A stretch of 45,501 nt of DNA from Hyphomicrobiales bacterium (GTDB lineage Bacteria; Pseudomonadota; Alphaproteobacteria; Rhizobiales; Beijerinckiaceae), in the NCBI GenBank assembly GCA_019246665.1, contig JAFAQA010000148.1:1-45501 (forward strand), given 5' to 3'. The position numbers and the translations under genes are program-made. Below, piece by piece: positions 6,183 to 8,219 of the stretch. Each line of letters opens with the position of its first letter. Position 1 is the first letter of the stretch. Below the pieces are notes generated by a model. The model was not told the DNA's origin, searched no databases, and worked only from the letters and a program-made list of their open reading frames with translations.

Positions 6183-6386
6183 TCAATCTTTTTCGTGGGG
6201 CCTTTCGCTCATCGCCTCGTCCTCATCGGTGTCCTCCGGCTCCGAGACGGGGATCGCATAGGCCCCCTTGAGCCAGCGCCCGAGGTCGATATCAGCGCAA
6301 CGGCGCGAGCAGAAGGGCGTGAATGGCTCGGCGGGAGGCTTGCCGCAGATCGGGCAGCGCTTGCTAGTCCTGCTTTCACCCCTCAT
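6183..6386 (-). CDS. yacG: DNA gyrase inhibitor YacG (zinc protein)
   Basis: A 67-aa protein with a four-cysteine zinc site, CPICGKPPAEPFTPFCSRRC, followed by the family segment ADIDLGRWLKGAYAIP and an acidic tail (EPEDTDEDE). YacG binds the GyrB C-terminal region and blocks DNA binding by gyrase. ATG at 6386 is preferred; a GTG at 6389 is directly in front. It lies upstream of, and 12 bp from, the MFS gene. In many alphaproteobacteria yacG follows maf and an RNase gene; neither is present here, so the context has been rearranged. Confidence 0.9.
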   Translation of the reverse strand: MRGESRTSKRCPICGKPPAEPFTPFCSRRCADIDLGRWLKGAYAIPVSEPEDTDEDEAMSERPHEKD

Positions 6387-6553
6387 CACCGTTGCAGCCG
6401 GCTCACTGCACCGCCTCGGAAGGGCGCATTGAGGGGTTTTCTCCGCAGGCCTATCGCGCCAGACTCCGTATCACGATCTGCAATATCGCCCGAGCGGTTT
6501 TGCGAAAGGAAATGGTAGAATGGCAAAGCGAAACCCTCTCTCACTCTCTCGGC

Positions 6554-6591
6554 TTGGCTCAATCTACCCCTTTGGGGTATACAAGCCTTGT
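6554..6591 (+). promoter_or_regulatory. Promoter and operator of the toxin-antitoxin pair at 6590
   Basis: TTGGCT (6554-6559) and TATACA (6578-6583) sit 18 bp apart as a sigma-70-like promoter. ACAAG-C-CTTGT (6581-6591) is a perfect inverted repeat overlapping the -10 and the GTG start, a usual place for antitoxin binding. If the -10 is right, transcription would start at or near the GTG, so the message may be leaderless. This is inference from spacing only. Confidence 0.5.
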
Positions 6592-6936
6592 GGCGGCACT
6601 GACTCTTATAACGGTTGTCGAGACTAGTCCCTATCTCACGATGGTGTCGGGCATAATGAATGAGGCCGAAAGGACAGCGGTGGTCAACATGATCGCGTCA
6701 AACCCAACGGCTGGAGATCTGATCCAGGGGACCGGAGGCCTGCGAAAAGTTCGCGTTCCTTTGCGGGGTCGCGGGAAGCGCGGAGGCGGGCGGGTTATCA
6801 CTTTTTTTGCGACAGTGACATGCCGGTCTTTTTGATTGCGGCATATGCCAAGAACGATCGCAACGATCTCGATCAGAAGCAGCGCAGCGCTGCCAAGGCG
6901 CTCACCCAAGCCATCCGTGCTCAATACGGGAGATAG
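6590..6936 (+). pseudogene. RelE/HigB-type toxin gene with a -1 frameshift at a T7 run
   Basis: From a GTG at 6590 the frame reads VAALTLITVVETSPYLT, then NPTAGDLIQGTGGLRKVR and GRGKRGGGRVIT, the recognisable pattern of RelE/HigB-like mRNA interferases. At TTTTTTT (6802-6808) this frame ends soon in an off-family tail (TVTCRSF). Shifting back one base restores CDSDMPVFLIAAYAKNDRND and LDQKQRSAAKALTQAIRAQY, ending at TAG 6936, exactly the expected C-terminus. That stop is 4 bp before the antitoxin ATG. Either one T has been lost (a dead gene or a sequencing error), or ribosome or polymerase slippage on T7 makes the full toxin. The track's ATG at 6392 adds sequence outside the family. Confidence 0.75.
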
Positions 6937-6940
6937 GCCG

Positions 6941-7282
6941 ATGAACAGAAGAGATTTCGAGGGGCTGATGGCAGGGCTCAACGACGCTCTGTCATATGCC
7001 AACGGCAAAGCGAGCGCCGGAGCCCGCGAGCATCGCGTCGAAGTCAATCATACCTTTGTTGGGACCACGAGACTAAAGGCGGGACTGACGCAGGAAGAAT
7101 TCGCCAAGGTCACTGGCGCCTCTCTCGGCACAGTGCGCAAATGGGAGCGCGGTGAGCGCGTTCCTTCCGGGGCGGCTGGAATGCTCATACGAATTCTCGC
7201 GCGCGAGCCCAAGTTGGTGATCCAGGAAGCTGGCCTCGTACGCAAGAAATTGCGGGGTCAGCGGCGAGCCAAGGCGGCGTGA
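6941..7282 (+). CDS. HTH-domain antitoxin (HigA/NadS-like)
   Basis: A 113-aa protein with a Cro/C1-type helix-turn-helix, LTQEEFAKVTGASLGTVRKW, followed by ERGERVPSGAAGMLIRILAR, the usual ending of NadS/HigA-type antitoxins. The N-terminal part (MNRRDFEGLMAGLNDALSYA) would bind the toxin. Start set at ATG 6941 because it follows the reconstructed toxin stop by 4 bp, the normal spacing in this family; the track's start at 6836 lies inside the toxin. It probably represses the shared promoter through the ACAAG/CTTGT repeat at 6581. Its frame is intact although the toxin's is broken. Confidence 0.85.
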   Translation: MNRRDFEGLMAGLNDALSYANGKASAGAREHRVEVNHTFVGTTRLKAGLTQEEFAKVTGASLGTVRKWERGERVPSGAAGMLIRILAREPKLVIQEAGLVRKKLRGQRRAKAA

Positions 7283-7328
7283 GCTTATAGCTGCCTGCGG
7301 TGTCCCAGGCCGCGCGTTAAGCGCTTTC

Positions 7329-8219
7329 ATGCGCGAGGGCCTCATTCCCCACAAGATCACGACGATCTTGCGTCTCACCACGACGCCAGATCGAGCGCGT
7401 GTCCTCACGGAAGCGCTCGCTGAGGTTTTCGATCCGGAAAATTCCGCGGTCGCCGCCTTCGAGCAGAAGGACGGAAGCTGGCTCGCCGAAATCTATTTCG
7501 CCGAGGAGCCGGACAGAAAGGCGGTTGCGGATCTCGTCGCGCTCATCATGGGCAAGACCACGGCGGGCACGCTTCGTTTCGAAGCGCTCGCCGCGAAGGA
7601 TTGGGTGGCCGCGAGCCTCGAGGGGCTGAGACCCATCCGCGCCGGTCGTTTTCTCGTGCATGGCGCGCATGATCGCGCTCTCGTGCTCCCAAACGATATC
7701 GGCATCGAGATCGAGGCTTCACTCGCCTTCGGCACGGGCCATCACGGCACCACGAGGGGCTGTCTCTTGGCGCTCGATCGGGTCATCAAGCAAGAGCGTC
7801 CCGCGCGCGTGCTGGATGTGGGCACCGGCACGGGCGTGCTCGCCATCGCGGCCGCCAGGGCATTGCGAAGCGAGATCGTCGCGGGCGACATCGACCCGAT
7901 CGCGATCGAGGTGGCGCGTGAGAATGCGGGCCGCAACGGCGTTGCCTCTCGTCTTCGCCTCTATTGCGCGGCTGGCCTTCGACACCCGCTCGCCGACAAG
8001 CCTTCGAGCTTCGATCTCATCCTCGCCAACATTCTCGCAAGGCCGCTCGCGCAGCTTTCGCCTACTCTCGCCCGGGCCTTGTCGGAGAATGGCAAGCTCG
8101 TCATCTCCGGCTTGCTGGAATCGGATGTCGCACTCGCGCTCTCGGCGTTCGGCAGACAAGGGCTTCACCTCGACCGGCGCTACCTCATCGAAGGCTGGGC
8201 CACCTTGATCCTGCGTTGA
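7329..8219 (+). CDS. prmA: Ribosomal protein L11 methyltransferase PrmA
   Basis: A 296-aa SAM-dependent enzyme that trimethylates ribosomal protein L11. The catalytic domain has SLAFGTGHHGTTRGCL, then the SAM-binding loop LDVGTGTGVLAIAAA (about residues 160-174), the acidic GDIDPIAIEVARENA and the NILARPL motif that replaces NPPY in PrmA. The N-terminal 110 residues form the L11-binding domain. The ATG at 7329 follows the antitoxin gene by 46 bp. It is probably expressed alone, or with the thioesterase downstream. Confidence 0.93.
   Translation: MREGLIPHKITTILRLTTTPDRARVLTEALAEVFDPENSAVAAFEQKDGSWLAEIYFAEEPDRKAVADLVALIMGKTTAGTLRFEALAAKDWVAASLEGLRPIRAGRFLVHGAHDRALVLPNDIGIEIEASLAFGTGHHGTTRGCLLALDRVIKQERPARVLDVGTGTGVLAIAAARALRSEIVAGDIDPIAIEVARENAGRNGVASRLRLYCAAGLRHPLADKPSSFDLILANILARPLAQLSPTLARALSENGKLVISGLLESDVALALSAFGRQGLHLDRRYLIEGWATLILR

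What the first reader, a model, noticed from the sequence alone, without database searches (positions are those of the whole stretch)
6590..6936. Toxin gene split at a T7 slippery run while its antitoxin stays intact
The RelE/HigB-like frame ends just after TTTTTTT (6802-6808). A -1 shift recovers the full family C-terminus and a stop 4 bp before the antitoxin. T7 is a classic site for ribosomal or polymerase slippage, so full toxin may be made only as a small fraction of product. The alternatives are a real inactivating deletion or a homopolymer read error. The promoter spacing also suggests a leaderless start at GTG 6590.
Basis: partly seen in the sequence, partly recalled or inferred. Interest (0 to 1): 0.62.

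Follow-up and report, generated by a model that had tools for sequence, protein, structure and literature searches.

The report
Recently broken HigB-type toxin, antitoxin intact
A small bacterial self-poisoning gene (a HigB2-type toxin) has lost one base in or beside a run of seven T's and most likely no longer works, while its antidote gene and control region are intact; this is the ordinary first step by which such gene pairs decay, and nothing found supports a built-in frameshift switch.

Summary
T7 lies at 6802-6808. Frame 0 (GTG 6590 to TGA 6835, 81 aa) is the N-terminal part of a RelE/HigB toxin, and the -1 frame (6808 to TAG 6936) is its C-terminal part, ending 4 nt before an intact HigA-like antitoxin (6941-7282). 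Joined, they match PF06296 and V. cholerae HigB2.

The slippage reading is not supported. In 119 aligned rows from homologs none is split at this site. The closest relatives (65-72% identical) lack the seventh T. One distant relative has the same in-register T7 but simply keeps frame 0. No downstream RNA structure was found, and U_UUU_UUU is reported as a weak bacterial slip site.

A recent one-base deletion fits best. Toxin-broken, antitoxin-intact copies occur in at least four other family genomes, none at this run. Sister species carry a different TA pair, a decayed remnant or nothing at this yacG-prmA site. A second HigB copy in the same genome is also broken. An assembly error remains possible, although a 418 kb sample shows no general homopolymer problem.

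The leaderless-start guess is well supported: in 115 homologous upstream regions the promoter places the start codon at about +1.

The parts
6554..6583 (+). Promoter: -35-like TTGGCT (6554-6559), 18-nt spacer, -10-like TATACA (6578-6583)
   Evidence: Sequence; the same geometry in homologs. The generic sigma-70 scan did not flag it, so it rests on conservation.
6565..6579 (.). Palindromic operator TACCCC-TTT-GGGGTA between -35 and -10, probable HigA binding site
   Evidence: Near-identical palindrome upstream of the close homologs; binding itself is inferred
6590..6835 (+). Frame-0 toxin product: 73 residues of HigB2-type toxin, then 8 off-frame residues and TGA; GTG start at predicted +1 (leaderless)
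6802..6808 (+). T7 run, in register ACT TTT TTT (heptamer U_UUU_UUU); site of the frame break
6808..6936 (+). C-terminal part of the toxin in the -1 frame, containing the equivalents of HigB-TAC F93 and K95 (Y86 and K88 of the joined reading)
   Evidence: residue roles from PMC9098466
6941..7282 (+). Intact HigA-like antitoxin, C-terminal HTH; own SD-like GGGAG at 6928-6932
   Evidence: pN 0.15 vs pS 0.60 against the closest homolog
6183..6389 (-). yacG, left flank of the insertion site
   Evidence: PF03884, 57 bits; conserved order in sister genomes
7329..8219 (+). prmA, right flank of the insertion site
   Evidence: PF06325, 187 bits

Best explanation
This is a HigB2/HigA2-type (PF06296) type II toxin-antitoxin operon whose toxin gene was recently inactivated by loss of one base in or beside the T7 run, probably by replication slippage. 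Translation from the leaderless GTG at 6590 gives an 81-aa product that lacks the last beta-strand, the residues equivalent to HigB-TAC F93 and K95, and the C-terminal helix, so it is expected to be inactive. The promoter, the palindromic operator and the antitoxin are intact, so the antitoxin can still be made and can still repress its own operon. Broken toxin with intact antitoxin is the expected first stage of TA decay, because the antitoxin cannot be lost while the toxin works. Shown here: the break, its uniqueness among relatives, intact flanks, parallel broken copies. Inferred: loss of activity, slippage as the mutational mechanism, continued autoregulation.
For: No homologous row outside the window is frame-split at this site; the closest read ATC AC[CA] TT[TC] TT[TC] CA[TC] straight through. 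Toxin-only lesions with intact antitoxins occur elsewhere in the family: a 2-bp deletion within a few codons of the same place in G223:C5:2198206 against a near-identical intact paralog, and nonsense codons in G308, G152 and G211; four confirmed and three more flagged among 86 family matches. At the same yacG-prmA site the sister genomes have a ParE-type pair (G002), a decayed remnant of it (G003) or no TA (G001). The genome's other HigB copy (C419) is also broken: altered toxin N-terminus and an antitoxin CAG-to-TAG difference. Key C-terminal residues fall after the break. The downstream frame still shows third-position-biased change (pN about 0.21, pS 0.64-0.83), like an intact pair, so the break is recent.
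Against: The downstream frame is still constrained, as it would also be if full toxin were made or if the base were a read error. Synonymous sites are near saturation, so 'recent' is loose. No second isolate of the species is held. The break lies exactly in the longest T run of the window's genes, which also fits sequencing error or slippage.
Confidence: 0.66

Rival explanations
1. The missing base is a sequencing or assembly error and the toxin gene is intact in the organism.
For: Single-base loss at a homopolymer in a 546-contig draft. Everything else in the gene pair is intact and constrained. GeneTack authors expect most isolated, homology-confirmed frame breaks to be sequencing errors (PMC3711429).
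Against: In 418 kb of this assembly, seven other homopolymers of 7 or more inside predicted coding segments are in frame, and only two suspicious frame changes were flagged, with about one-third sensitivity to simulated deletions. No split gene in about 24 kb of coding stretches compared with the sister genome G002. The many short contigs look like short-read assembly, where T7 is rarely misread (inference).
Confidence: 0.21
2. Programmed -1 ribosomal frameshifting or transcriptional slippage at T7 makes a small fraction of full toxin.
For: The heptamer T_TTT_TTT is in the exact register for -1 re-pairing, and the -1 frame restores the full family C-terminus. A GGAGG lies 15 nt upstream (6782-6786). 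The downstream frame is still constrained.
Against: No homolog has a split gene with a conserved slip site; one distant relative (L036) has the same in-register T7 and keeps frame 0. No downstream structure. U_UUU_UUU is reported as much less shift-prone than A_AAA_AAG (PMC5009743). Bacterial selection against transcription slippage is usually evident at nine A/T (PMC1088944). GGAGG falls in the conserved K-R-G-G codons and is further upstream than in dnaX (own knowledge).
Confidence: 0.07
3. Phase variation: the T run changes length reversibly at the DNA level and switches the toxin on and off in the population.
For: T7 is the kind of tract that can slip during replication.
Against: Seven bases is short for contingency loci (own knowledge); the close homologs have shorter or interrupted runs; no population data are held.
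Confidence: 0.05

Closest known systems
HigB2/HigA2 of Vibrio cholerae (PDB 5JA8, 5JA9, 5JAA, 5MJE, 9TV9; PF06296)
   Same: Joined toxin matches HigB2 at E 4.5e-20; antitoxin matches HigA2 at E 6.4e-5; toxin-first gene order (HigBA order in general: own knowledge)
   Different: The toxin reading frame is broken here; the solved HigB2 is one chain
HigB-TAC of Mycobacterium tuberculosis (PMC9098466)
   Same: Related HigB branch with a long C-terminal helix; the paper equates its F93 with HigB2 Y82, which aligns with Y86 here, so K95 falls at K88
   Different: No SecB-like chaperone gene in this operon; the toxin is broken
HigB/HigA pairs of Methylocystis and relatives (L002, L020, L100 and others)
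   Same: 65-72% identical toxin, 70-75% identical antitoxin, same palindrome and promoter spacing
   Different: Toxin intact in one frame, no T7
Bacterial -1 frameshift genes (dnaX, IS1/IS3 transposases)
   Same: A slippery heptamer in register
   Different: No conserved site, no RNA stimulator, singleton

Membership tests
HigB2-type RelE toxin (PF06296) with HigA antitoxin | Toxin sequence matches the family over its length | tested here: met
   36 bits joined (cutoff 27); each half alone about 15 bits; HigB2 E 4.5e-20
HigB2-type RelE toxin (PF06296) with HigA antitoxin | Toxin upstream, HTH antitoxin directly downstream in one operon | tested here: met
   4-nt gap; HTH_3 35 bits; HigA2 E 6.4e-5
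HigB2-type RelE toxin (PF06296) with HigA antitoxin | Catalytic and C-terminal residues present in one reading frame | tested here: not met
   Y86, K88 and the C-terminal helix lie in the -1 frame: a broken member, not a working one
HigB2-type RelE toxin (PF06296) with HigA antitoxin | Ribosome-dependent RNase activity neutralised by the antitoxin | not testable with these tools
Programmed -1 frameshift gene | Slippery heptamer in register | tested here: met
   T_TTT_TTT at 6802-6808
Programmed -1 frameshift gene | Frameshift site conserved among homologs | tested here: not met
   No homologous row outside the window is split at this site
Programmed -1 frameshift gene | Downstream RNA stimulator | tested here: not met
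   z-scores -0.27, -0.71 and -0.39; pseudoknots not modelled
Programmed -1 frameshift gene | Fusion product made in cells | not testable with these tools
   Needs mass spectrometry or a reporter
Leaderless mRNA | Promoter places the start codon at +1 | tested here: met
   6 nt between TATACA and GTG 6590; 28 of 35 TTGAC matches in 115 homolog upstream regions begin at -37 to -33
Leaderless mRNA | Mapped 5' end at the start codon | not testable with these tools
   Needs 5' RACE or TSS sequencing

The most novel reading that the evidence does not exclude
In this species the toxin is deliberately made only by -1 slippage at T7 from a leaderless GTG mRNA, giving a trace of full toxin and a large amount of truncated product, a new way of throttling a type II toxin.
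Probability: 0.06. Interest if true: 0.62.

Novelty: new member of a known kind. Interest (0 to 1): 0.2.

Why it matters
As a pseudogene it is a routine example of TA decay with the toxin going first, but a well-bracketed one: the same yacG-prmA site holds a different TA pair, its remnant or nothing in the three sister species. The family-wide promoter geometry predicts that HigB2-type toxins are translated from leaderless mRNAs, which is easy to test and bears on how toxin synthesis continues when normal initiation is disturbed. If the slippage reading were true after all, it would be a new layer of toxin control.

Tried and rejected
Conserved slip site in relatives: not found in 119 aligned homolog rows. 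Closer relatives: sister genus members lack the gene at this locus; samples of 397 family genomes and 398 order genomes, plasmids, genome contigs and viral contigs gave nothing above 72% identity. Structured RNA: no downstream structure, no Rfam match. Generic promoter scan found nothing; the promoter is argued from conservation instead. A first frame-change HMM was mis-parameterised and found nothing; the corrected one has about one-third sensitivity, and it does not flag the window's own short gene. Translation of the C-terminal fragment alone from ATG 6820 by re-initiation was considered and judged unlikely (no SD, a fragment of about 38 aa). Structure prediction was not run, because the joined reading is not a single-frame translation. 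Papers on programmed frameshifting in toxin genes: none found with the terms tried.

Full report
What is there. The window is a whole 45,501-base contig (C85) of a 4.86 Mb, 546-contig draft genome. Contigs of relatives placed in the same family match Methylocystis records by length (for example G017:C35 and L088, both 117,457 bases), so the organism is probably a Beijerinckiaceae-type alphaproteobacterium (inference). Between yacG (6183-6389, minus strand) and prmA (7329-8219, plus strand) lies a two-gene unit. A frame from GTG 6590 to TGA 6835 encodes 81 aa. A second frame, -1 relative to it, runs from the T7 run at 6802-6808 to TAG 6936. Four bases later ATG 6941 starts a 113-aa HTH protein. 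Neither toxin half reaches the PF06296 RelE cutoff; joined they do, 36 bits against 27, and they match V. cholerae HigB2 at E 4.5e-20. The downstream protein matches HigA2 at E 6.4e-5.

What the break removes. Frame 0 keeps 73 family residues up to ...RVITFF and then goes off frame. In the ungapped alignment to HigB2, HigB2 Y82 falls at Y86 of the joined reading (offset of 4 taken from the 110-aa chain; native numbering assumed). The M. tuberculosis HigB-TAC paper equates HigB2 Y82 with its F93 and shows that K95A abolishes toxicity, and that the long C-terminal helix contacts the P-site tRNA (PMC9098466). All of these lie beyond the break, so the 81-aa product is expected to be inactive. That is an inference, not a test.

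Is the T7 a programmed slip site? It has the right register (ACT TTT TTT, heptamer T_TTT_TTT). Nearly everything else speaks against it. Homologs came from 60 relatives, 397 family genomes and a genome-contig scan. The aligned table has 122 rows, three of them the window itself; none of the other 119 is split at this site. The 65-72% identical group reads ATC ACC TTC TTT CAC, ATC ACC TTT TTC CAC, ATC ACC TTC TTC CAC or ATC ACA TTT TTT CAY, without the seventh T. One distant homolog (L036) does have T7 in the same register and continues in frame 0. RNA folding downstream is no better than shuffled sequence. In E. coli U_UUU_UUU is reported as much less shift-prone than A_AAA_AAG (PMC5009743), and selection against transcriptional slippage is usually evident only at nine A or T (PMC1088944). 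In the scheme of PMC3711429 a programmed site needs a cluster of frame-broken homologs with a conserved site, while isolated cases are mostly indels or sequencing errors. This case is isolated. The closest homologs have CAC/CAT after the two Phe codons and the window has -GC, so the lost base need not have been a T.

Real deletion or read error? For a real deletion: toxin-broken, antitoxin-intact copies are a recurrent state of this family. G223 carries a copy with a 2-bp deletion within a few codons of the same place, with no homopolymer, against a near-identical intact paralog in the same genome (684 of 713 aligned columns identical). G308, G152 and G211 have nonsense codons inside the toxin and open antitoxin frames. 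Of 86 family matches outside this genome, seven were flagged with an internal stop or a split, and four of those I confirmed. The second HigB copy of this genome (C419) lacks its normal N-terminus and has an antitoxin TAG where the sister genome G002 has CAG. At the yacG-prmA site itself, G002 carries a ParE toxin with a small upstream gene, G003 only a degraded remnant of that ParE, and G001 no TA. Against a general error problem: seven other runs of 7 or more inside predicted coding segments in 418 kb of the assembly are in frame, and only two suspicious frame changes were flagged at about one-third sensitivity; 25 homologous coding stretches (23.7 kb) shared with G002 show no split gene. 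This lowers but does not remove the chance of an error at this one site.

Age. In comparisons with the closest relatives the -1-frame part has the same excess of third-position changes as the intact part and as an intact-intact pair (that script stopped after the first control pair). The antitoxin is likewise constrained (pN 0.15, pS 0.60). So the break is recent, or the gene is intact in nature. It is unlikely to be an old pseudogene. Synonymous sites are near saturation, so no finer dating is possible.

The leaderless start. The window has TTGGCT, 18 nt, TATACA, 6 nt, GTG 6590, with the palindrome TACCCC-TTT-GGGGTA between and overlapping the boxes. The same palindrome stands before the close homologs. 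In 115 distinct homolog upstream regions, 28 of 35 TTGAC matches begin 33-37 nt before the start codon, with a palindrome of varying sequence after them. With a standard promoter that places the start codon at about +1. Leaderless mRNAs are known for TA genes in M. tuberculosis (PMC8485053, abstract), and a TA regulator is translated leaderless in E. coli O157:H7 (PMC8630535). In S. meliloti all mapped leaderless starts were AUG, and non-AUG starts are said to be inefficient (PMC3616915), so the GTG here may lower toxin output further.

Verdict. Ordinary: a HigB2/HigA2-type TA pair with a recently broken toxin (0.66), or a read error (0.21); programmed slippage about 0.07, phase variation about 0.05.

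Noticed in passing
window 6554-6590; homolog loci L002-L124 and L191-L206: HigB2-type toxin genes across Alphaproteobacteria, other Proteobacteria and Acidobacteria share a promoter-palindrome-start layout that puts the start codon at about +1, suggesting family-wide leaderless toxin mRNAs.
   Followed up: partly
window 6390-7328; L137 (G002), L138 1-636 (G003), L134-L135 (G001): The yacG-prmA gap is a TA exchange site: HigBA here, a ParE-type pair in G002, a decayed ParE remnant in G003, no TA in G001.
   Followed up: yes
L019 1417-2119 (G000:C419): Second HigBA copy of the same genome is broken: altered toxin N-terminus, a short in-frame loss, and an antitoxin TAG where G002 has CAG.
   Followed up: partly
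L179 404-746 (G223:C5:2198203-2198545): A HigB paralog with a 2-bp deletion in the toxin and an intact antitoxin, beside a near-identical intact copy (L189) in the same genome.
   Followed up: yes
L036 2001-2345: A distant homolog (Terriglobia MAG) has the same T7 in the same register but stays open in frame 0.
   Followed up: partly
L153 about 7358 (minus strand); L171 about 16310: The only two other suspicious same-strand frame changes flagged in 418 kb of the genome; not at homopolymers.
   Followed up: no
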